Shown one piece after another: positions 7,077 through 38,513 of a DNA stretch of 46,000 bases. The translations under genes and the position numbers were made by a program. The notes below the pieces were generated by a model. That model did no database searches. It was given only the letters and a program-made list of their open reading frames with translations, and was not told where the DNA came from. Numbering within the stretch: the first letter of the stretch is position 1; the number at the start of each line of letters is the position of its first letter. Source of the stretch: Elusimicrobiaceae bacterium (GTDB lineage Bacteria; Elusimicrobiota; Elusimicrobia; Elusimicrobiales; Elusimicrobiaceae); contig JAFXGO010000023.1 of the NCBI GenBank assembly GCA_017520185.1, forward strand, positions 1 to 46,000, read 5' to 3'.

Positions 7077-7556
7077 TTAGTTCATGTAATAGCAGGTATC
7101 ACCCGTTCCGCTGACACATTGATCACCGGAACCCCAAGCACTAAAACCAATATCTCTACACAAAGAATACCTTGTTGAAGCAGCTTTACAAATGCGATAT
7201 CCCAAAGAATTCATGTGCAAAGTGACAGAATCAGGATTATAGCGCGCCCCCGCCACAATAAACGGCCCTTCCGAAGTACAATCTCCGGTAATTCCATAAG
7301 TAAAATATTTAGAATCTTCTACATCAACGGAAAGGGCGCTCGGTGTTATATATGTGGCTGACGGATTTTCTAAACAATATACTTGTCCTGCTTTCAGTAA
7401 AGCACTCATATTGCTCCATGCTTCAGCAGTACGGCTTTTAAGCACCGTTTTTTGATATTGCGGCAAAGCCACCGCAGACAAAATACCGATAATTAACACC
7501 ACTACCAACAATTCAATCAGCGTAAAACCGCTGCTATTTTTAAATGATTTTTTCAT
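7077..7556 (-). CDS. Type IV pilin-like protein (copy A)
   Basis: 159 aa. The leader is MKKSFKNNSG-type, cut after Gly before FTLIELL (prepilin peptidase site, Glu at mature position 5). The helix [19 protein letters not shown] is followed by LPQYQKTVLKSRTAEAW. The C-terminal globular part has paired cysteines (RICKAAS...CRDIGF) and ends CYYMN. The start is the ATG at 7556, with an AAGGA Shine-Dalgarno; in-frame codons further up are upstream sequence. It stands alone with its own promoter and terminator; no pilus assembly gene is nearby. Likely a major or minor pilin, or a pseudopilin, of a type IV pilus or secretion system encoded elsewhere. Confidence 0.85.
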   Translation of the reverse strand: MKKSFKNSSGFTLIELLVVVLIIGILSAVALPQYQKTVLKSRTAEAWSNMSALLKAGQVYCLENPSATYITPSALSVDVEDSKYFTYGITGDCTSEGPFIVAGARYNPDSVTLHMNSLGYRICKAASTRYSLCRDIGFSAWGSGDQCVSGTGDTCYYMN

Positions 7557-7594
7557 AGTGTAAGTCCTTTTTGATTTAAATTCCCTGCTCTTTA

Positions 7595-7623
7595 AATTTA
7601 ACAAAAAAAAACTAAAACGCCAA
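7595..7623 (-). promoter_or_regulatory. Promoter of pilin copy A
   Basis: TTGGCG (7618-7623), 17-nt spacer, TAAATT (7595-7600) with TGT immediately before it (extended -10). The 5' leader is about 30 nt and carries AAGGA. Confidence 0.6.
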
Positions 7624-7657
7624 GTATTTTTAATTTCCGATGAAAAAATGCTCAATA

Positions 7658-17375: not shown

Positions 17376-19115
17376 CTAATCTTGATATTTTTTAGACTTG
17401 TAGTGCGTATGCAAGAGCTCATGCGCCACAGGGCCGCCTATCTTATCCAAAATGCGTCCGTACAAGGCTTGCACGCCGCTATTGTCTTGAGATTTATAGG
17501 CCAACTCCGTATCTTCTTGATACAAGCCTTGAGCACGCGTTTTGCGCAAAGACCAACCTTCAAACTGAGGTTGACCGGCACCGGCCACACAACCGCCCTG
17601 ACAAGACATAACTTCAATGAAATCATAATGTTTTTTACCTTCTTTGATTTCATCTAAAAGTTTGCGGGCATTTTTAAGACCGCTGACTACCGCTACTTTG
17701 ATTTCCAAATCACCGATTTTGATGGTTTTTTCTTTAAACACGTCAAAACCACGCAAGCTGTTAAATTTTACACTGCGGGCATTTTCAGGGTCCAATTCAG
17801 CCAAAGCATAGCGCAAAGCCGCTTCCATTACACCGCCGGAAGCACCAAAGATAACACCGGCACCGGTCTTGGTACCAAACGGCATATCAAACCATTCGTT
17901 TTCCAAGTTGGCAAAATCAATACCGGCCTCTTTAATCATACGGGCCAAACCGACTGTAGTGACCACATAGTCCGTATCCGGATTACCGTTGACATAGAAT
18001 TCACCGCGTTTGGCTTCGCTCTTTTTGGCAGAGCAGGGCATCACTGCCACTACCACCAAGTCTTCGCGTTTGCCACCGCGTTGTTCAAAATCGGCTTTCA
18101 AGACAGGGCCCATCATCTGCATCGGAGAGCGAGCCGTAGACAAGTTGGGAATAAATTCCGGAGCAAACTTTTCCACGTAATTGACCCACGCCGGGCAGCA
18201 GCTGGTGAGTTGTGGTAAATTGGTGCCTTTTTTAACGCGACCCAAAAATTCCGTAGCTTCTTCCAGAATCGTCAAATCTGCAGCAAAAGCCGTATCATAG
18301 ACATAATCAAAGCCTAACATGCGCAAAGCGGCAGCAATTTTGCCATCCACCGGTTCACCCGGTTTCAAACCAAAAATTTCGCCCAAACCTACGCGCACGG
18401 CCGGAGCAATATGCACCGCTACTTTTTTATTGGGGTTATTAATGGCTTTAAAAACTTCTGAAATTTCAGAAGAATTCGGCATCAAAGCACCCGTCGGACA
18501 TACGCGAGCACATTGACCGCAGGCCACACATTCGTGGCTTTCGCCCAATTCTTTGTTAAAAGCGGTCGCAATTTTAGATTTAAATCCGCGGAAAGCAAAG
18601 TCAATAGCGCCAATGCCTTGTACTTCATTACAAATACGCACACAGTTTCCGCACAAAATACATTTACTGTGGTCGCGCACCAAAGCGGCAGAAGTGGCAT
18701 CTTTGTGGCTATCTAACTTTTTAGATTTAAAACGAATTTCCGTCACGTCCATATCTTTGGCCAATTTCTGCAATTTGCAGTTATTGGATTTGGAACAAAG
18801 CGTACAGTCGTGATTGCCCGAAGAAAGCAAAAGCTCCAAGTTAATGCGGCGCAATTTGCGGATTTCGTCACTGTTGACGCGCACTTTCATACCGTCTTTA
18901 GGGGCAACGGTACAAGAGGCCAAAATACCCATTCCTTCAATTTCTACCAAGCACAAACGGCACGCACCGTAGACGGCCAATTCGGGGTGATAACAGAAGG
19001 TGACGATGTTAAAGCCAGCCTTACGCACCAACTCCAACAAATTCTTTTCGCCTTGAATAGCAACTCTTTTTCCTTCAATAGTCACAAAACCTTGTTCTTT
19101 CTTTTCTTCTTGCAT
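17376..19115 (-). CDS. hydA: [FeFe] hydrogenase catalytic subunit, NADH/ferredoxin-linked (HydA/HndD type)
   Basis: 579 aa. N-terminal [2Fe-2S] domain (FCYHPELAVYGACRLC), a His-Cys3 [4Fe-4S] site (HDCTLCSKSNNC), two ferredoxin clusters (CILCGNCVRIC, CVACGQCARVCPTGA), then the H-cluster domain with L1 TSCCPAWVNYVEK, L2 MPCSAKKSE and L3 EVMSCQGGCVAGAGQP. The small-subunit-like tail follows at about 515-579. With the HydB and HydC partners it fits the electron-bifurcating group A hydrogenases, which produce H2 from NADH and reduced ferredoxin together. Shine-Dalgarno AGGAG lies inside the end of hydB; the genes are 2 nt apart. The maturases HydEFG are not in the window. Confidence 0.93.
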   Translation of the reverse strand: MQEEKKEQGFVTIEGKRVAIQGEKNLLELVRKAGFNIVTFCYHPELAVYGACRLCLVEIEGMGILASCTVAPKDGMKVRVNSDEIRKLRRINLELLLSSGNHDCTLCSKSNNCKLQKLAKDMDVTEIRFKSKKLDSHKDATSAALVRDHSKCILCGNCVRICNEVQGIGAIDFAFRGFKSKIATAFNKELGESHECVACGQCARVCPTGALMPNSSEISEVFKAINNPNKKVAVHIAPAVRVGLGEIFGLKPGEPVDGKIAAALRMLGFDYVYDTAFAADLTILEEATEFLGRVKKGTNLPQLTSCCPAWVNYVEKFAPEFIPNLSTARSPMQMMGPVLKADFEQRGGKREDLVVVAVMPCSAKKSEAKRGEFYVNGNPDTDYVVTTVGLARMIKEAGIDFANLENEWFDMPFGTKTGAGVIFGASGGVMEAALRYALAELDPENARSVKFNSLRGFDVFKEKTIKIGDLEIKVAVVSGLKNARKLLDEIKEGKKHYDFIEVMSCQGGCVAGAGQPQFEGWSLRKTRAQGLYQEDTELAYKSQDNSGVQALYGRILDKIGGPVAHELLHTHYKSKKYQD

Positions 19116-19117
19116 AA

Positions 19118-21001
19118 TTACGCTCCTGTCACCACGGCGCCAAATTTACAAGTGCTCTTACATCCGCCACACTTGATACATTTATTGACATCAATTACAT
19201 GCGGTTTTCCTACCGCACCGGAAATAGCTTGCACCGGGCAAGCGCGTTTGCACATACCGCAGCCTTTACACTTATCGGCCACAATTTCAAAACGTGCCAA
19301 CGCTTTACATACACCCGCCGGGCAACGTTTTTCTACAACGTGGGCTAGATATTCTTCTCTAAAGTGTTTCAAAGTAGAAAGCACCGGATTGGGAGCGGTT
19401 TTTCCTAAAGCGCAGAGAGAGGCTTTTTGTACCGCTTTAGCCAAATCTTCCAAGTTTTCCAATGTTTTCATGGTTGCGCGCCCTTCTACAATATCATTAA
19501 GCATGCTCAACATCTGCTCCGTACCTTCACGACAGGGAACACATTTACCGCAAGATTCGCGTTGAGTAAACTCTAAGAAGAAACGAGCCACGTTAACCAT
19601 ACAGGTCTTGTCGTTCATGACCACTAAACCGCCGGAACCTACCATAGCGCCGGCAGAACGCAAAGAATCAAAGTCCAAAGGCAAGTCCAAATGTTCTTTG
19701 GTCAAACAACCACCGGAAGGACCGCCGATTTGAGCAGCTTTGAAGGCTTTGTGATTGACGGTGCCGTCATCTTCAGTCGTACCTCCGGCCACTTCATCAA
19801 TGACTTGGCGCAAGGTCGTACCCATCGGCACTTCCACTAAACCGGTGTTAGCAATGTGGCCCGTCACAGCAAAAGTTTTGGTGCCAGGACTGGTCAAAGT
19901 ACCGATTTTCTTAAATTCTTTAGCACCCATTTCCATAATTTTGGCTACAGTGGCTAAAGTTTCTACGTTGTTAATAACCGTCGGTTTATCAAACAAACCT
20001 TTTTGGCTGGGGAAGGGCGGTTTGACATTGGGCATACCGCGTTTTCCTTCAACAGAAGCAATTAAAGCCGTTTCTTCACCACAGACGAAAGCACCGGCAC
20101 CTTCCATAACGTTAATTTTGAAATTAAAACCGGAACCAAAAATATTTTCACCCAACAAGCCTAATTCTTCGGCCTGAGCAATAGCAGTGCGCATGCGCTG
20201 TACGGCTAAAGGATATTCCATACGTACATAGATATAACCTTCATCGGCACCAATGGCACGCGCGGCGATCATCATACCTTCAATAACGGCATTGGGGTTG
20301 CCTTCCATGACACTGCGGTCCATAAAAGCACCCGGGTCGCCTTCGTCAGCATTACAAATGACATATTTTTTCGGGCCGGGCTCAATGCGGGTTAAATCCC
20401 ATTTTTTACCAGTCGGAAAACCGCCACCGCCACGTCCGCGCAAGCCGGATTCCATAATTTCTTTACAAACTTCTTCATCCGTCATTTGGGTATAGGCTCT
20501 TTTGGCTTGAGCATAACCGCCATGAGCGATATATTCGTTAATATCTTCCGGATTGATACGGCCACAATCATGCAACAAGATACGTTCTTGTTTGGAATAG
20601 AAAGGGATTTCTGCCGTTGTTTTACAATGTTGCTTGGAGTTGGGATCGGTATAAAGCAAGCGGTCCACCACTTCGCCTTTTACAATCGTTTTTTCCACAA
20701 TTTCAGGCACATCTTCCGGTTTTACATGCGTATAAAAAATATCATTTACGCTCACCAAAGGACCCGCCGCACAAAAACCGCGACAACCGCTCATGCTGAT
20801 ATAATTTTCATGGCAGCCTTTGGTAATGTTTAAACAATAACCGATTTTGCGCGCTTCCAATTCTTTCTGAAAAGCATCATATACCTTCATAGAACCGCCG
20901 GCAATACAACCCGTACCGCCACAAATAGTAATACGGCCCGTCACGTTCTGATAAGCATCATTATATTCTTTAGCAATTTGTTCAATCGTTTTTTTAGGCA
21001 T
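19118..21001 (-). CDS. hydB: Hydrogenase NADH/FMN subunit (HydB/HndC, NuoF-like)
   Basis: 627 aa. N-terminal thioredoxin-like [2Fe-2S] part (ICGGTGCIAGGS, then KGCHENYISMSGCRGFCAAGP), NuoF core with GLRGRGGGGFPTGKKW (FMN) and the NAD site, SLBB region, [4Fe-4S] motif SCGKCVPCREGT, and a C-terminal 2x[4Fe-4S] ferredoxin (CKGCGMCKRACP, CIKCGGCKSTC). It takes or gives electrons at NAD(H) and splits them to HydA and ferredoxin. The start is ATG at 21001, with GGAGG eight bases upstream; the upstream in-frame codons belong to hydC. It overlaps hydC by 8 nt. Confidence 0.92.
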   Translation of the reverse strand: MPKKTIEQIAKEYNDAYQNVTGRITICGGTGCIAGGSMKVYDAFQKELEARKIGYCLNITKGCHENYISMSGCRGFCAAGPLVSVNDIFYTHVKPEDVPEIVEKTIVKGEVVDRLLYTDPNSKQHCKTTAEIPFYSKQERILLHDCGRINPEDINEYIAHGGYAQAKRAYTQMTDEEVCKEIMESGLRGRGGGGFPTGKKWDLTRIEPGPKKYVICNADEGDPGAFMDRSVMEGNPNAVIEGMMIAARAIGADEGYIYVRMEYPLAVQRMRTAIAQAEELGLLGENIFGSGFNFKINVMEGAGAFVCGEETALIASVEGKRGMPNVKPPFPSQKGLFDKPTVINNVETLATVAKIMEMGAKEFKKIGTLTSPGTKTFAVTGHIANTGLVEVPMGTTLRQVIDEVAGGTTEDDGTVNHKAFKAAQIGGPSGGCLTKEHLDLPLDFDSLRSAGAMVGSGGLVVMNDKTCMVNVARFFLEFTQRESCGKCVPCREGTEQMLSMLNDIVEGRATMKTLENLEDLAKAVQKASLCALGKTAPNPVLSTLKHFREEYLAHVVEKRCPAGVCKALARFEIVADKCKGCGMCKRACPVQAISGAVGKPHVIDVNKCIKCGGCKSTCKFGAVVTGA

Positions 21002-21476
21002 TTTTGGCCTCCGCAGCGGCAATTTCGTCAATTAATTGGCAGGCTTGGGCCGGCGTAATCTGCCCATGTACGGTTTCGTCAATTACCATAACCGGTGCCA
21101 AACCGCACGCGCCCAAACAGGAAACGCATTCTAAGGTGAATAATCCGTCTTCGGTGGTATCTTGACCGTCTTTCAATTTTAATTTGTCTTTTACTGTATT
21201 AATAACGAAAGAAGATCCTTTTACGTGGCAAGCGGTACCGTTGCACACTTTAATAATATGTTTTCCTTTCGGCGTAATGGCAAAATGCGCAAAGAATGTA
21301 GCCACACCAAACACTTTGGCGGGGGAAATTTCCAATTTATTGGCAATATGACGCATTACGTCTTCAGGTAAGTAGCGATACAATTCTTGTACCTTTTGCA
21401 GTATGGGAATGAGCTTGGCAGGGTCATTGCCATGCTCTTTAAGTATTTTATCCACGGGGGCGAATCTTTCTGTCAT
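20994..21476 (-). CDS. hydC: Hydrogenase NuoE-like [2Fe-2S] subunit (HydC/HndA)
   Basis: 160 aa. A helical N-terminus (VDKILKEHGNDPAKLIPILQKVQELYRYLP, shown in part by LQKVQELYRYLP) leads to the thioredoxin-like domain with the four cluster cysteines CNGTACHVKG and CVSCLGACGLAPV. First gene of hydCBA. The ATG at 21476 has an AGGAGA Shine-Dalgarno. The frame is open for 29 more codons upstream to an ATG at 21563, but that stretch contains a hairpin and has no NuoE similarity, so I treat it as leader. Confidence 0.9.
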   Translation of the reverse strand: MTERFAPVDKILKEHGNDPAKLIPILQKVQELYRYLPEDVMRHIANKLEISPAKVFGVATFFAHFAITPKGKHIIKVCNGTACHVKGSSFVINTVKDKLKLKDGQDTTEDGLFTLECVSCLGACGLAPVMVIDETVHGQITPAQACQLIDEIAAAEAKNA

Positions 21477-21492
21477 GGGTTCTCCTGTTTTT

Positions 21493-21521
21493 AAAAATCC
21501 GGAAGAAAGGGATTTTCTTCC
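21493..21521 (-). promoter_or_regulatory. Terminator-like hairpin in the hydCBA leader (candidate attenuator)
   Basis: On the minus strand an 8-bp stem GGAAGAAA/TTTCTTCC (21514-21521 with 21501-21508) encloses ATCCC and is followed by GGA and five T. It sits directly before the Shine-Dalgarno at 21481-21487. It could reduce read-through or cover the ribosome site; no known riboswitch class is recognised. Confidence 0.4.
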
Positions 21522-21603
21522 CGACAAAACGACCACCGCACCTATTCGGCACGGATAAGACATTACTATTTAAAATAAAACAAATAGGACTGCTTATCTT
21601 TTC

Positions 21604-21659: not shown

Positions 21660-22709
21660 TTACAAACTAATGCATAAAGCGACAAAATAGCCTGTCATCA
21701 ACACCAAACCGACAGGCACTGCCACGCGCGCCCATTCGCGGCTTTTGATGTTTAATTTTTCCGCAGCCACGATATTGGGCAAATTGCCCTGCACAAGCAT
21801 ACTGCCAAAGGCTGCTAAGCCGATAACCATATACATCAAGTTTTCTGTAGAAACATTGGGAGTCACTTCAATAGCGGCCAATGTGGCATTGTCAATAATA
21901 ACAGAAACAGCATTGGCCCAAAACAAAATTTTTCCGTTTAAAAGAGCAATCGTGCTTTGTGCAAACGGCCGCAACCCCGTACTGATTAAATGCAATGCCG
22001 CCACAAACAGATAAATATTCCACGTGCGGCGCAAGATGGATTTGGGGTCTTCTTTATCCTCGCGGATATGAAGCTGCACTTGAGTGTTGGTATTACGCAC
22101 CGTATAACCGGCGGCCAAAGCACACAAAACAATACCCGGCACTATCCACCAGAAAAAGTGACGAAGCACAAAGAAAAAATCAGCCTGATGCGGGCCGGCC
22201 GCCAACTCATTATAAATCACCAATCCCAAAGGTTCGGCCAACGGCAGCAAAATAGCCCCCAACCCAATGGCATAACAAGCATAAACAGTCACTTTGACTG
22301 TTTGATCTCTCTCCAAATTTACCACTTGCAAAACTTCAGCCAACACCAATGCCGCCACCGTCACACTACAAATGCTTGACATCATTCCCAACAAAAAAAC
22401 CAATACGGCAAAACTATAGCGCGGCTCCAAATACCGAAACAAAATAAACAATACTCTAAAAATATAACGAGAATAATGATTAAAAATAACACTTACTACC
22501 AATACAATAAACGCCACGTTTACAGGGGCATTGAACGTTTGATAAACAAAATCCTTACTCCAGCCACCGGCAATGCTTACTGCGGCTATCCCCACCAACA
22601 AAAGAAACATCTCCAAGTGGTTTTCCACCCACTTGGATACCAGCGGCCATATTAATAGATTTAATACGACTATTGATAATAAAATTTTGGTAATCAATGA
22701 TACTTCCAT
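21660..22709 (-). CDS. DUF1646 family membrane transporter
   Basis: 349 aa, about 10 membrane segments. The C-terminal part has the family signature: NATLAAIEVTPNVS, then ENLMYMVIGLAAFGSML and VQGNLPNIVAAEKL. The family belongs to the ion-transporter superfamily and is predicted to move cations or organic anions; the substrate is unknown. The start is set at ATG 22709 (MEVSLITKIL), 7 nt after a TAAAAT hexamer; in-frame codons further upstream (to 22790) overlap the promoter and lack a ribosome site. Upstream of hydCBA in the same direction but separated by the hyd promoter. Confidence 0.75.
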   Translation of the reverse strand: MEVSLITKILLSIVVLNLLIWPLVSKWVENHLEMFLLLVGIAAVSIAGGWSKDFVYQTFNAPVNVAFIVLVVSVIFNHYSRYIFRVLFILFRYLEPRYSFAVLVFLLGMMSSICSVTVAALVLAEVLQVVNLERDQTVKVTVYACYAIGLGAILLPLAEPLGLVIYNELAAGPHQADFFFVLRHFFWWIVPGIVLCALAAGYTVRNTNTQVQLHIREDKEDPKSILRRTWNIYLFVAALHLISTGLRPFAQSTIALLNGKILFWANAVSVIIDNATLAAIEVTPNVSTENLMYMVIGLAAFGSMLVQGNLPNIVAAEKLNIKSREWARVAVPVGLVLMTGYFVALCISL

Positions 22710-22716
22710 GACCATC

Positions 22717-22722
22717 ATTTTA
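22717..22722 (-). promoter_or_regulatory. -10 box TAAAAT, leaderless type
   Basis: On the minus strand TAAAAT ends 7 nt before the ATG at 22709; no TG extension and no Shine-Dalgarno. Two other ATGs overlap it, so the exact start is less secure. Confidence 0.4.
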
Positions 22723-22743
22723 CTAAATATTTTTTTTAATACG

Positions 22744-22774
22744 TTGTAAAAAATTCTATCTATTTTTGTAGAAT
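22744..22774 (+). promoter_or_regulatory. Possible promoter of the 220-aa Lys/Ala-rich protein
   Basis: TTGTAA (22744-22749) and TAGAAT (22769-22774) with a long 19-nt spacer. A leader with AAGGAG before the ATG at 22814 follows. Confidence 0.4.
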
Positions 22775-22813
22775 ATAAATGATGTACCAAGCATAATGAT
22801 TAAGGAGCTATAC

Positions 22814-23476
22814 ATGAAGAAAGTATTTATTACCTTGTGTGTGTTGGCAGTAGCCTCTGTGGCTTTTGCCGCCGAAACCTGCACCTGCCAAGCCGGCGAT
22901 TCCGCCTGCTACGTCAGCTGTGTGCAAACCAAAGTGACGGCCGCCCGTAAAGCTACCGCTCAAAAAGTACAAGCTGCTAAAGAAGCATTAAAAGCCAAAC
23001 AAGCCGAAGCTAAAAAGAACACCGTTACTGAAGAAGATGTCAAAGCCTCTTTGGAAAACAAAAAAGCCGAATTGAAAGCTCAAGCCAAAGCCAAAAAAGA
23101 ACAAGCTAAAAAAGATGCCGAAGCTAAAAAAGCCCAAGCCAAAGCCGAACTCGAAGCCAAAAAAGCTAAAGCCAAAGAAGATGCCGAAAACTATAAAGCC
23201 TCTTTGAAAGCCAAAAAAGCCGAAACGGAAAGCAAAATTGCTGTCGCCAAAGCCAATGCCGAAGAAAAAGTAAATGCCGCTAAAGCTAAGGTAGAAGCCG
23301 CCAAAGCCGAACTCAAAGCCGCTAACAACGACGAAGAAAAAGCCGCTGCTCAAGCCAAAGTAGAAGCTGCCAAAGAAGCCTTGAAAGCCAAAAAAGAACA
23401 AGCGAAAGAAAACGCTAAAAATGCCGAAAAAGCCGCTAAAAACGAATTAGCCGCTTGGAAAGCCTTAGCCAAATAA
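22814..23476 (+). CDS. Secreted Cys-motif protein with long Lys/Ala/Glu helix
   Basis: 220 aa, not recognised. Signal peptide 1-19 (VAFA then AE). The mature N-terminus holds four cysteines spaced CxCx6Cx3C (CTCQAGDSACYVSC), followed by TKVTAARKA. From about residue 45 to the end it is built of Ala, Lys, Glu and few others (EAKKAQAKAELEAKKAKAK), which should form one long solitary or coiled-coil helix. Start at ATG 22814 with AAGGAG; an in-frame ATG at 22796 precedes this ribosome site and would spoil the signal peptide. The next gene is a paralogue. It could be an envelope spacer or lipoprotein-like linker, but it has no lipobox. Confidence 0.75.
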   Translation: MKKVFITLCVLAVASVAFAAETCTCQAGDSACYVSCVQTKVTAARKATAQKVQAAKEALKAKQAEAKKNTVTEEDVKASLENKKAELKAQAKAKKEQAKKDAEAKKAQAKAELEAKKAKAKEDAENYKASLKAKKAETESKIAVAKANAEEKVNAAKAKVEAAKAELKAANNDEEKAAAQAKVEAAKEALKAKKEQAKENAKNAEKAAKNELAAWKALAK

Positions 23477-23494
23477 ACAACTTCTTTCTAATAC

Positions 23495-23524
23495 AAAAAC
23501 CGCACTTTTAAGTGCGGTTTTTTT
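23495..23524 (+). terminator. Terminator between the two Lys/Ala-rich genes
   Basis: AAAAACCGCACTT and AAGTGCGGTTTTT form a near-perfect stem with a T tail, so the paralogues are separate transcription units. Confidence 0.88.
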
Positions 23525-23566
23525 GTTTTAGAATAAAGAAGCAGTAAATATGAAAAGGGGGTATGT

Positions 23567-24049
23567 ATGAAAAAAATCATTCTTACGGCTACAGCCTTAT
23601 TGCTTGTAAGTGGTGCTTCTTATGCCACTCAGATGTGCCAATGCGCTAACGGCGATATAAAATGCATTAATGCCTGCACCAAGACCAAAGTAAAAAATGC
23701 CAAAGCGCAAGTAGCGGCACAGAAACAAGCCGATAAGGCTTTTTTAAAAGCCGACAAAGCCGTCACCAAAGAGGCTTCCAAAGACTTAAAAGGCTATTAC
23801 AAGGCCGATAAGCAAGCCGTCAAAACAGAAATGAAAGAAATTAAAGAAAAGGCCAAAGAACAAATCAAACAGGATAAGGCTCAAGGCAAAGCAAATAAAG
23901 AGGCAATCAAAGCCGAACATAAAAAAGCAAAACGCGCCGCCAAAGAACATAAAAAAGAAATGAAACAAGAGGCCAAAGCGGCCAAAAAGGCATCTAAAAA
24001 CCAAGCAGTGGCAGAAGTAGTAGATTGGGAAGCGGTGGTGGAAAATTAA
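23567..24049 (+). CDS. Secreted Cys-motif protein with Lys-rich helix (paralogue)
   Basis: 160 aa, not recognised. Signal peptide 1-20 (ASYA then TQ). The mature N-terminus has the same CxCx6Cx3C pattern (CQCANGDIKCINAC) followed by TKTKVKNAKAQ, then a Lys/Ala/Glu/Gln-rich helix with more lysine and less alanine than its neighbour, ending in an acidic, hydrophobic tail (VAEVVDWEAVVEN) not found in the other. Shine-Dalgarno AAAGGGGG. Very basic helix and secretion suggest binding to polyanions (LPS, DNA, peptidoglycan), as inference. Confidence 0.75.
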   Translation: MKKIILTATALLLVSGASYATQMCQCANGDIKCINACTKTKVKNAKAQVAAQKQADKAFLKADKAVTKEASKDLKGYYKADKQAVKTEMKEIKEKAKEQIKQDKAQGKANKEAIKAEHKKAKRAAKEHKKEMKQEAKAAKKASKNQAVAEVVDWEAVVEN

Positions 24050-24052
24050 AAT

Positions 24053-24083
24053 AAAAACCCCCGCTCTCTAAGCGGGGGTTTTT
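24053..24083. terminator. Bidirectional terminator
   Basis: AAAAACCCCCGCT and AGCGGGGGTTTTT form a perfect 13-bp stem with loop CTCTA, shared by the + Lys-rich gene and the minus-strand pilin. Confidence 0.93.
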
Positions 24084-24091
24084 ATTTTAAA

Positions 24092-24574
24092 CTAATCTAG
24101 ATAGTACCAATTTCCACCTATTCCACAAACACCACTCATACCATCTGTCGGAGACGCAGTTTTAGCCCCTATATCTTGACAGCCACTTCCTCCACAAACA
24201 CGCCGACCATTTTTTATGCCCAATTCGAAGATTTTATTACCGTCATAATAATAACCCGTCAGATCTATCTTATACGGATCTTGCGTACAATTAACTTCTC
24301 CTCCATAACGAAAATACTTGGAACTCTCTACTTCTATGGAAAAACCTGCCGGAACATTTCCGCCACTAGCCGTTGACCACCAACTAATATTTGATGTGGG
24401 ATTTTCCATACAATACACAACAGCGGCTTTGTTTAATGCACTTAAATTGGCCCATGCTTCGGCAGTGCGGCTCTTAAGTACCGTCTTTTGATATTGCGGC
24501 AATGCCACCGCAGACAAGATACCAATGATTAGGACCACAACTAACAACTCAATCAAAGTAAAACCTTTCTTCAT
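24092..24574 (-). CDS. Type IV pilin-like protein (copy B)
   Basis: 160 aa. Short leader MKKG with cleavage before FTLIELL, the shared helix and LPQYQKTVLKSRTAEAWANL, then a variable region (TSNISWWSTASGG) and the Cys pair RRVCGGSGCQDIG near the C-terminus, which ends NWYYLD rather than CYYMN. Shine-Dalgarno AAGGAGA before the ATG at 24574. Its GFTLIELL block is nearly the same DNA as in the other copies, while the 3' two thirds differ. Confidence 0.85.
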   Translation of the reverse strand: MKKGFTLIELLVVVLIIGILSAVALPQYQKTVLKSRTAEAWANLSALNKAAVVYCMENPTSNISWWSTASGGNVPAGFSIEVESSKYFRYGGEVNCTQDPYKIDLTGYYYDGNKIFELGIKNGRRVCGGSGCQDIGAKTASPTDGMSGVCGIGGNWYYLD

Positions 24575-24805: not shown

Positions 24806-25363
24806 TTACAAAATAATCATACGGATAGCCATAATCACCAACACTAATCCGGCCACAAATTCTACTTTTTTGCCTACAATCGTTTTAGAGGATTTGGTGC
24901 CCATATGAAAACCTAAAACCGTCATCAAGAAAGAAATGACCAGCAAAAATAAAACTTGAGGGAACCAACTTTTCCCAAATAATTCCAACGCATAACCAAT
25001 CAAGAAAAATTGAGAGGCACTTAAAGCAGCCACCTTCACCAATTTTTTGGTATCATCGGCTTCTTCTTCTTTGAAACTGGGGGACTTTTCTAACATTTCC
25101 AACATATGCTTGATGCCCAACAATAACAAGAAGGCAAAAGCAATCCAGTTGGCTACATTTACAAAATAACCGCGGAAAAACAAAATGCTAAAGATATAGC
25201 CTATCGTAAAAAAGATGGCATTAAATCCGGAAAAGAAAACCGCTGATTTGATGGAAAAAACACTTTTGGTTTTCAACTCCATTTTCGTAGCCGTCATATT
25301 AGCTGTCACCATATTATCCGTACACAGACAAATAAAAATAATGATTAACGCTATCAATCCCAT
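24806..25363 (-). CDS. Divergent MntP-like membrane protein
   Basis: 185 aa with six predicted membrane segments in two halves of three. The first half keeps the acidic motif (CTDNMVTAN, equal to SMDNFAVAI in the neighbour). The second half reads LSASQFFLIGYAL where MntP has ATSLDALLVGMAL, so the second membrane aspartate is missing. MntP exports Mn2+; loss of one acidic residue makes such activity doubtful alone. It follows the canonical MntP by 33 nt with an AAGGAGA ribosome site, so a joint complex is possible. Upstream TTTGCTAATAT overlaps the neighbour's stop and may add a promoter. Confidence 0.7.
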   Translation of the reverse strand: MGLIALIIIFICLCTDNMVTANMTATKMELKTKSVFSIKSAVFFSGFNAIFFTIGYIFSILFFRGYFVNVANWIAFAFLLLLGIKHMLEMLEKSPSFKEEEADDTKKLVKVAALSASQFFLIGYALELFGKSWFPQVLFLLVISFLMTVLGFHMGTKSSKTIVGKKVEFVAGLVLVIMAIRMIIL

Positions 25364-25396: not shown

Positions 25397-25963
25397 TTAG
25401 CAAATTCCCAGCCCGCTGAGTAGTACCCATACACCCACCGCGCTTAATGACACTCCGCCAGACACTTCCATCCAAGTACCAAAACGTTTGCCTAAATAAT
25501 TTCCTAAATAAAATCCTATATAACTGGTGACAAGCACAGACCCCATCATAAACACCAATGTCAAAAGATATGGAGCCTGCGTCAAAGAGAGTGCCATTCC
25601 TACCAACAACGCATCTAAACTGGTGGCTAAAGCAAGCACAAAAATCATTTTCAAAGAAATCAGTTGGCACAAAGAAGTTTCTTCTTTTTTTTCAAAAGCC
25701 TCCTTTACCATTTTTAACCCAATCAAAAGCAAAACAATAAAAGCAAACCAATGATCCACCGAGTCTATCACCCGGCCCAATTCTTTTCCGCCGAACCACC
25801 CCACACTGAGCATCAGTGCGTGTGCCAACACAAAACAAAGGCTAACTCCTAAAATGTGTTTAAAACGCAAATTTCTGCCACAAGCACACCCTGAGGCAAT
25901 GGCAACAGCAAAGTTATCCATAGACAAACTAAGCGCTACTATAAAACTAGACAGTACGTTCAT
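25397..25963 (-). CDS. mntP: Manganese efflux pump MntP
   Basis: 188 aa, six membrane segments. Both family motifs are present: SMDNFAVAIASG in helix 1 and TSLDALLVGMALS in helix 4, each with the conserved membrane aspartate, and Gly-rich segments in between (SVGWFGGKELG). In E. coli MntP exports Mn2+ and is controlled by MntR and a Mn riboswitch; no such riboswitch is seen here, as the leader is absent or very short. CATAAT ends 6 nt before the ATG. Divergent from the serine dehydratase, with 39 bp between the starts. Confidence 0.88.
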   Translation of the reverse strand: MNVLSSFIVALSLSMDNFAVAIASGCACGRNLRFKHILGVSLCFVLAHALMLSVGWFGGKELGRVIDSVDHWFAFIVLLLIGLKMVKEAFEKKEETSLCQLISLKMIFVLALATSLDALLVGMALSLTQAPYLLTLVFMMGSVLVTSYIGFYLGNYLGKRFGTWMEVSGGVSLSAVGVWVLLSGLGIC

Positions 25964-32055: not shown

Positions 32056-32547
32056 TTAATTTACAAAGTAGCATCCGTTGGCACCCGGATTTATTCCGCA
32101 AACACAATCTGTATTTGTACTGGTATATTCTACAAAACCAATGTCTTTACAATTATTTCCCTGACATTGGCGTTGCCCTTCTGCATTGATACCTAATGTA
32201 AAGGATTTTCCGCCTTTTGAATAAGTAGCATATGCCTGACGATTATTTGGTTGAGAACAGTAAACTGACCATATATCGTAGGTAAAATTATTAGAGTTTG
32301 GCACCTCAACCGAAAGCAACTCTTTATCAAGACCAGTATCATGAGTAGCATCCGGATTTTCCAAACAATAGACCTCTATCGCTTTATTCATGGCACTTAA
32401 GTTGGCCCATGCTTCGGCAGTGCGGCTTTTAAGCACCGTCTTTTGATATTGCGGCAATGCCACCGCAGATAAGATACCGATAATTAGCACTACAACTAAC
32501 AACTCAATCAGCGTAAAACCGCTGTTATTTTTAAATGATTTTTTCAT
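32056..32547 (-). CDS. Type IV pilin-like protein (copy C)
   Basis: 163 aa. Leader MKKSFKNNSG and cleavage before FTLIELL; shared helix and LPQYQKTVLKSRTAEAWANL; variable middle (DATHDTGLDKELLSVEVPNSN); C-terminal cysteines RQCQGNNCKDIGF and CVCG, ending GCYFVN. Its leader is nearly identical to copy A, whereas copies B and D have the short leader MKKG, so two leader types exist. The ribosome site is AAGGAAA. Confidence 0.85.
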   Translation of the reverse strand: MKKSFKNNSGFTLIELLVVVLIIGILSAVALPQYQKTVLKSRTAEAWANLSAMNKAIEVYCLENPDATHDTGLDKELLSVEVPNSNNFTYDIWSVYCSQPNNRQAYATYSKGGKSFTLGINAEGQRQCQGNNCKDIGFVEYTSTNTDCVCGINPGANGCYFVN

Positions 32548-38023: not shown

Positions 38024-38458
38024 CTAATTCATATAATAACAATCACCGGAACAGAAACAATTTCCTCTACCGGAACCGGCCGTAGAAAACCCTATATCAG
38101 CACATCCTTCTCCTTTGCAAGATCTGGCCCCAGAAGAACCAAAACCCAAAGAAAAACTAGGAGATTTTTTATAAGAAGCGACTATCACACTATCAACGTT
38201 AGAGCATTCTGACATATAATATTGAAAATATTCAGAATCTTCTACCTCGATAGACAAAGCATTTCTGTCTATATATGTTTCATTGGTTTCCAGACAATAC
38301 ACTTTAGCAGCCGTTCTCAAAGACTGCAAATTGGTCCATGCTTCAGCGGTGCGGCTTTTAAGCACCGTCTTTTGATATTGCGGCAATGCCACCGCAGACA
38401 AGATACCGATAATCAGCACCACAACTAACAACTCAATCAGCGTAAAACCTTTTTTCAT
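38024..38458 (-). CDS. Type IV pilin-like protein (copy D)
   Basis: 144 aa, the shortest intact copy. Leader MKKG, cleavage before FTLIELL, shared helix and LPQYQKTVLKSRTAEAWTNL, variable middle (TYIDRNALSIEVEDSEYF), then RSCKGEGCADIGF, CFCSGDCYYMN at the end. The start is the ATG at 38458 with a GGAG ribosome site; twelve in-frame codons upstream would put extra residues before the prepilin leader. Monocistronic with its own promoter and terminator. Confidence 0.85.
   Translation of the reverse strand: MKKGFTLIELLVVVLIIGILSAVALPQYQKTVLKSRTAEAWTNLQSLRTAAKVYCLETNETYIDRNALSIEVEDSEYFQYYMSECSNVDSVIVASYKKSPSFSLGFGSSGARSCKGEGCADIGFSTAGSGRGNCFCSGDCYYMN
38335..38449 (-). repeat. Conserved pilin 5' block, one of five copies
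   Basis: This roughly 115-bp block encodes GFTLIELL through TAEAW. It recurs nearly unchanged at 32406-32520, 24451-24565 and 7416-7529, and in part at 12301-12364, all in the same orientation. Differences are scattered single bases. Downstream of it the genes diverge strongly. It offers a homology tract for recombination between loci up to 31 kb apart. Confidence 0.85.
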
Positions 38459-38485
38459 TTTTAACTCCATTATTTTATTTATTAT

Positions 38486-38513
38486 ATTATACAAATTAAA
38501 AAAAATCTGCCAA
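38486..38513 (-). promoter_or_regulatory. Promoter of pilin copy D
   Basis: TTGGCA (38508-38513), 16-nt spacer, TATAAT (38486-38491), then a leader with GGAG. Confidence 0.65.

What the first reader, a model, noticed from the sequence alone, without database searches (positions are those of the whole stretch)
22814..24049. Paired secreted proteins: CxCx6Cx3C module plus long Lys/Ala helix
Two adjacent, separately terminated genes share a signal peptide, identical spacing of four cysteines, the following TKV segment, and a very basic, low-complexity helix, yet their helices differ in sequence and length and only the second has an acidic end. This looks like a family in which the Cys cap is conserved and the helix drifts by composition. 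Possible roles: periplasmic spacer, polyanion binder, antimicrobial or envelope scaffold.
Basis: partly seen in the sequence, partly recalled or inferred. Interest (0 to 1): 0.65.

Follow-up and report, generated by a model that had tools for sequence, protein, structure and literature searches.

The report
Lineage-specific secreted cysteine-capped helical rods
Two neighbouring genes in a gut bacterium encode exported, positively charged, rod-like helical proteins with a four-cysteine head and a tryptophan tail; they belong to an apparently undescribed protein family confined to one family of gut bacteria, where the rod is probably an abundant part of the cell envelope, though its role is unproven.

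Summary
Proteins A (22814-23476, 220 aa) and B (23567-24049, 160 aa) share a signal peptide, CxCx6Cx3C, the TKV segment and a basic helix. It is not chance: one homologue, rarely two, occurs in 54 of 66 genomes of the host genus and about 12 of a sister genus, and nowhere else among 341 genomes of the phylum. Of 62 distinct full-length members, 61 keep the exact Cys spacing.

The helix does not merely drift by composition. Its Ala stripe has period ~3.6; Lys lies on one side of it and Glu on the other in 38/38 members; helix indels keep helical phase; orthologues are under purifying selection. A has biased codons suggesting high expression; B does not.

Best reading: a secreted, soluble, cationic helical rod, probably a parallel coiled-coil oligomer pinned by the Cys head and Trp tail, coating or bridging anionic envelope polymers. 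Localisation, oligomer state and ligand are inferred. DsbA, DsbB and VKOR were not found, so disulfides are not assured; L,D-transpeptidase is missing from most carriers checked, so Lpp-like covalent tethering is unlikely. No Pfam or NCBIfam family fits.

The parts
22814..23476 (+). Protein A, 220 aa: signal peptide + 4-Cys cap + 184-residue K/A/E helix region + Trp cap
   Evidence: ORF; homologues in 51 of 61 genus genomes; AF2 mean pLDDT 82.5, helices 30-68, 73-169, 173-219; codon bias
22802..22807 (+). Ribosome-binding site AAGGAG of A
   Evidence: sequence
22814..22870 (+). Signal peptide of A (MKKVFITLCVLAVASVAFA, signal peptidase I type; exact cleavage site inferred)
   Evidence: sequence; no lipobox before the Cys
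22880..22921 (+). Cys cap of A: CTCQAGDSACYVSC (CxCx6Cx3C)
   Evidence: the four Cys invariant in A2
23426..23473 (+). C-terminal Trp cap of A: EKAAKNELAAWKALAK
   Evidence: Trp 6-8 residues from the end in 38/38 members
23495..23522 (+). Intrinsic terminator of A
   Evidence: 12-pair stem followed by T run
23567..24049 (+). Protein B, 160 aa: signal peptide + 4-Cys cap + 123-residue helix region + acidic Trp cap (VVDWEAVVEN)
   Evidence: ORF; orthologues only in G043 and G032; AF2 single helix 31-159
23553..23561 (+). Ribosome-binding site AAAAGGGGG of B
   Evidence: sequence
23636..23677 (+). Cys cap of B: CQCANGDIKCINAC
24053..24084 (+). Terminator of B
   Evidence: sequence; core stem found
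21660..22790 (-). Divergent neighbour, DUF1646 permease: syntenic landmark, not shown to be functionally linked
   Evidence: Pfam PF07854 E 5.5e-80; adjacent to the family gene in the genus loci examined

Best explanation
A and B are members of an undescribed family of exported, non-lipidated, polycationic helical rods of gut Elusimicrobiaceae. The chain is sent out by the Sec pathway and cleaved by signal peptidase I. The mature N-terminus carries a 4-Cys/Asp head (C1xC2 in a loop, C3xxxC4 on the first helix turns). A 100-237 residue helix follows, with an Ala stripe flanked by Lys on one side and Glu on the other, ending in an amphipathic Trp motif. Most likely the helices pair in parallel through the Ala stripe (the Glu-before-core / Lys-after-core arrangement makes attractive contacts in parallel pairing). 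The Cys heads lock the ends together by disulfide or a shared metal ion, and the outward Lys surface binds anionic envelope polymers (LPS phosphates, peptidoglycan carboxylates) as an abundant structural coat or spacer. Shown by computation: export signal, conserved caps, predicted helix, stripe, charge handedness, phase-preserving indels, codon bias of A. Inferred: oligomerisation, parallel orientation, Cys chemistry, location (periplasm or surface), ligand, abundance.
For: Family restricted to two genera, with conserved N- and C-caps. AF2 gives long helices, mostly pLDDT 70-96. Hydrophobic/Ala periodicity 3.60-3.62 with repeat lags 11, 18, 22, 29, 40. Lys on the + side and Glu on the - side of the stripe in 38/38 against permutation (mean z +2.95 / -2.31). 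Helix indels cluster at 4, 7, 11, 18, 22, 25, 29 residues, mean phase error 0.11 against 0.25 expected (74 indels), with no aligner bias in 372 simulations. Net charge positive in all 38, +7 to +33. Purifying selection. GCT/GCC-biased Ala codons in 34 of 38 genes, stronger in A than in the rpl/rpo genes of the same genome; the three B genes are not biased.
Against: Helix length varies 2.4-fold within one clade (100-237 residues), odd for a fixed-distance spacer. No DsbA above cut-off, no DsbB, no VKOR in 16 genomes, so disulfide locking is not assured. The Ala core is weakly hydrophobic, so the chain could be a monomeric or disordered polycation. Four near relatives have an empty site and no copy elsewhere, so it is dispensable. 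No structural match with E <= 0.001 in the PDB. Phase-preserving indels can also come from slippage of 33/54-bp repeats.
Confidence: 0.45

Rival explanations
1. Soluble stress protectant: a conditionally disordered Lys/Ala protein that works like group-3 LEA proteins or the E. coli periplasmic acid-shock protein Asr, folding on or shielding membranes and proteins under stress.
For: 11-residue repeat lag; one member has a weak Asr match (21.6 bits, E 2.8e-4); weak Apolipoprotein-like matches in 2 of 28 members.
Against: Asr score far below its cut-off of 50; no LEA match in any of 28 members; two conserved caps and a fixed Lys/Glu handedness suggest a specific structure.
Confidence: 0.2
2. Surface filament or adhesin subunit of the FadA kind: small exported helical proteins that assemble head to tail (Cys head to Trp tail) into fibres outside the cell.
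For: FadA chains are among the top (non-significant) Foldseek hits (E 1.2-3.3); conserved caps at both ends; gut-associated hosts.
Against: No FadA match in any of 28 members; no known outer-membrane exporter beside it; the FadA hits look like generic helix matches.
Confidence: 0.12
3. Monomeric single-alpha-helix (SAH/ER) spacer between two end modules.
For: Long, highly charged uninterrupted helix in B.
Against: E(i)-K(i+4) pairs, the hallmark of SAH stability, are not enriched (observed/expected 0.85); an ordered Ala stripe exists.
Confidence: 0.1
4. Metal-buffering head on a cationic stalk: the Cys tetrad binds Zn, Cu or Fe and the helix anchors it electrostatically to the envelope.
For: 4-Cys cluster near the mature N-terminus in a lineage without detected DsbA/DsbB/VKOR; MntP-like transporter genes nearby in many loci.
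Against: MntP neighbours are not at all loci and point the other way, often with a pilin gene between; the member in L092 has lost two of the four Cys.
Confidence: 0.1
5. Secreted cationic antimicrobial.
For: Cationic helix.
Against: 160-220 aa long with a conserved rod design; no immunity or export gene at the locus; purifying rather than diversifying selection.
Confidence: 0.03

Closest known systems
Lpp (Braun lipoprotein, PF04728)
   Same: Small exported helical protein with no enzyme domain; ends in Lys in 56 of 62 members; possibly abundant.
   Different: No lipobox, period ~3.6 rather than heptads, 100-237 residue helix, no L,D-transpeptidase found in most carriers checked, no Pfam match.
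Asr acid-shock protein (NF033636)
   Same: Exported Lys/Ala-rich basic repetitive protein; weak similarity in one member.
   Different: Score 21.6 against cut-off 50; the 4-Cys head and Trp tail are, from general knowledge, not Asr features.
Group 3 LEA proteins (PF02987)
   Same: 11-residue Lys/Ala/Glu repeats forming an amphipathic helix with an Ala face.
   Different: No Pfam match; here exported with two conserved caps.
FadA adhesin (PF09403)
   Same: Small exported all-helical protein.
   Different: No sequence match; Foldseek E > 1; no Cys head in FadA (general knowledge).
TolA domain II
   Same: Long Lys/Ala/Glu helix in the periplasm (general knowledge).
   Different: No transmembrane anchor, no C-terminal globular domain, no Tol gene context.

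Membership tests
Lpp | N-terminal lipobox with lipidated Cys | tested here: not met
   Signal peptidase I type site and first Cys a few residues into the mature chain, no LxxC
Lpp | Heptad (3.5) trimeric coiled coil | tested here: not met
   Periodicity peak 3.60-3.62, no signal at 3.5; trimer state not tested
Lpp | C-terminal Lys linked to peptidoglycan by L,D-transpeptidase | tested here: not met
   56/62 end in Lys, but no YkuD match in carriers G000, G043, G032, G055, G012, G083, G085; weak in G040, G047
Asr (NF033636) | Score above the curated cut-off (50 bits) | tested here: not met
   Best 21.6 bits, in 1 of the 10 members shown
Group 3 LEA (PF02987) | Pfam profile match | tested here: not met
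   No match in 28 members at E <= 0.1
Group 3 LEA (PF02987) | 11-residue repeats | tested here: met
   Autocorrelation 1.80 at lag 11; 33-bp repeats in many genes
FadA (PF09403) | Sequence or fold match | tested here: not met
   No Pfam match; Foldseek E 1.2 at best
Single alpha helix (SAH) | Enriched E(i)-K(i+4) salt bridges | tested here: not met
   observed/expected 0.85
Coiled-coil rod (class, not family) | Regular apolar stripe with complementary flanking charges | tested here: met
Coiled-coil rod (class, not family) | Oligomerisation | not testable with these tools
   Only monomer models available

The most novel reading that the evidence does not exclude
In a diderm lineage where DsbA/DsbB/VKOR and, in most carriers, L,D-transpeptidase were not found, an abundant non-lipidated polycationic coiled-coil rod with a metal-thiolate head serves as a non-covalent, length-variable envelope spacer in place of Lpp-type tethers; helix length changes by whole helical turns between species.
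Probability: 0.12. Interest if true: 0.65.

Novelty: new variant of a known kind. Interest (0 to 1): 0.42.

Why it matters
It defines an uncharacterised, lineage-restricted exported protein family with a clear, testable design (Cys head, phase-locked Lys/Ala/Glu rod, Trp tail). If abundant in the envelope as codon use hints, it would be a principal structural protein of gut Elusimicrobiaceae, a group with few cultured members. It also shows how a 'low-complexity' helix can keep register and charge handedness while changing length by whole turns.

Tried and rejected
Operon or functional partner: rejected. The gene stands alone with its own terminator; in the host genus it is next to a divergent DUF1646 permease, in the sister genus at other sites. 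Lpp-like covalent anchoring: lowered. Disulfide certainty: lowered, DsbA/DsbB/VKOR not found; a Cys-parity count of exported proteins in a sample of the genome plus the window was not informative (14 even, 11 odd; that script ended with an error after this count, so the pilin-only count was not obtained). Phage origin: no relative of the commonest subtype in viral contigs. Known structure or fold: none significant. Weak matches in order-level f2 genomes and in G016 were signal-peptide-only or chance. Origin of B (recent tandem copy or older paralogue): the cap tree does not resolve it (62 columns, long branches). Literature: searches for Elusimicrobi* with lysine-rich, coiled-coil and related terms turned up no description of such proteins.

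Full report
What is there. The window is a 46 kb contig of a 1.4 Mb genome. Related records are Elusimicrobiaceae MAGs, many from rumen and gut samples; the genus may be Candidatus Avelusimicrobium (listed), but this was not verified. Two genes follow one another on the + strand: A (22814-23476) and B (23567-24049), each with its own ribosome-binding site and terminator. Both encode a signal-peptidase-I type signal peptide, then CxCx6Cx3C, then TKV, then a Lys/Ala/Glu helix.

It is a family, not chance. A finds matches in 51 of 61 genomes of its genus. A profile of the head alone (A2), run over 341 genomes of the phylum, rings in 72. Setting aside signal-peptide-only or chance hits and one decayed copy, my count is 54 of 66 genomes of the host genus and 12 genomes of one sister genus, and no others. 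A search of about 85,000 bacterial and archaeal species for the commonest subtype gave 27 loci; those with a named taxon are Elusimicrobiota, and the few 'uncultured bacterium' records cluster with them. Of 62 distinct full-length members, 61 have the exact Cys spacing (that set was selected for a helix-like composition, a Cys cluster of CxC or CxxxC type and a Trp near the end). In the 38 members selected without regard to Trp, all have a Trp 6-8 residues from the C-terminus. B's acidic end is its version of this cap. Variants exist: a CxxxCx6Cx3C member (L087) and one with only two Cys (L092).

Distribution and fate. Most genomes hold one copy. The A+B pair is seen only in G000, G043 and G032. 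In the host genus the gene lies beside a divergent DUF1646 permease; in the sister genus it lies at other places. Four near relatives (G016, G056, G008, G050) give no head-profile match apart from a signal-peptide-only one in G016, and beside the DUF1646 gene no Lys/Ala-rich ORF is present; the blast matches run from DUF1646 straight to the MntP genes. G045 has a decayed remnant with a head, almost no helix, and the Trp tail in another frame. The gene is therefore dispensable.

The helix is ordered. AF2 gives long helices (A: 30-68, 73-169, 173-219, mean pLDDT 82.5 with 28 sequences; B: 31-159, mean 80.5 from one sequence). The Ala/apolar stripe has a period of 3.60-3.62, not the heptad 3.5. 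With non-apolar residues permuted as null, Lys lies on one side of the stripe and Glu/Asp on the other in 38 of 38 proteins (mean z +2.95 and -2.31; related proteins are not independent). Glu before and Lys after core residues is the arrangement that attracts in parallel coiled coils (general knowledge). E(i)-K(i+4) pairs are not enriched, which argues against a lone SAH. Helix indels between close members are mostly 4, 7, 11, 18, 22, 25 or 29 residues, i.e. near whole turns: mean phase error 0.11 against 0.25, and a simulation shows the aligner does not cause this. Slippage of the 33- and 54-bp repeats may contribute, so this is not proof of selection.

Selection and expression. Whole-gene dN/dS among the three genomes is 0.12-0.15 for A and 0.07-0.15 for B. 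For the helix it is 0.15-0.17 (A) and 0.06-0.10 (B). Codon choice in A is more biased than in rpl/rpo genes of the same genome (Ala GCT/GCC 95% against 80%, background 68%). The same direction holds in 34 of 38 family genes against neighbours; the exceptions are the three B genes and L085. This suggests, but does not show, that A is abundant and B is not.

Cysteines and anchoring. No VKOR, no DsbB and no DsbA above cut-off were found in 16 genomes, carriers and non-carriers alike. Other oxidants were not tested, so disulfides are possible but not assured; a metal site is open. L,D-transpeptidase (YkuD) is missing from 7 of 9 carriers checked, weak in two, which speaks against Lpp-like covalent attachment even though most members end in Lys.

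What it works like. The best-supported model is an exported, soluble, polycationic coiled-coil rod with a Cys head and Trp tail that coats or spaces the envelope by binding anionic polymers (0.45). Stress-protectant (Asr/LEA-like), FadA-like fibre, SAH spacer and metal-buffer readings remain. It belongs to no Pfam or NCBIfam family at threshold and has no significant fold match.

Noticed in passing
window 7077-7655, 24092-24574, 32056-32547, 38024-38494 (all -); also L155, L157, L158, L166-L168: Many type IV pilin-like genes with nearly identical N-termini ([25 protein letters not shown]) and 2-8 Cys, scattered through the genome; one lies just 3' of gene B.
   Followed up: partly
window 24806-25363 and 25397-25963 (-): Two adjacent MntP-like putative manganese efflux genes, conserved next to the site in many relatives.
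   Followed up: partly
L134 ~2590-2745 (genome G045): Decayed copy of the family gene: head and Trp tail remain in different frames with almost no helix between.
   Followed up: partly
L092 (genome G091) and L087 (genome G090): Variant heads: only two Cys in L092, CxxxCx6Cx3C in L087. If the two lost Cys are partners this could reveal the pairing.
   Followed up: no
L090:4351-5190: A member with an extra Cys-rich insert (CGCGKKCNCAAKKDGSSCGC) in the stalk, metallothionein-like in look.
   Followed up: no
window 17376-21563 (-): Three genes resembling an electron-bifurcating hydrogenase / NuoEF-type operon, judged by eye from the translations; conserved beside the site in many relatives.
   Followed up: no
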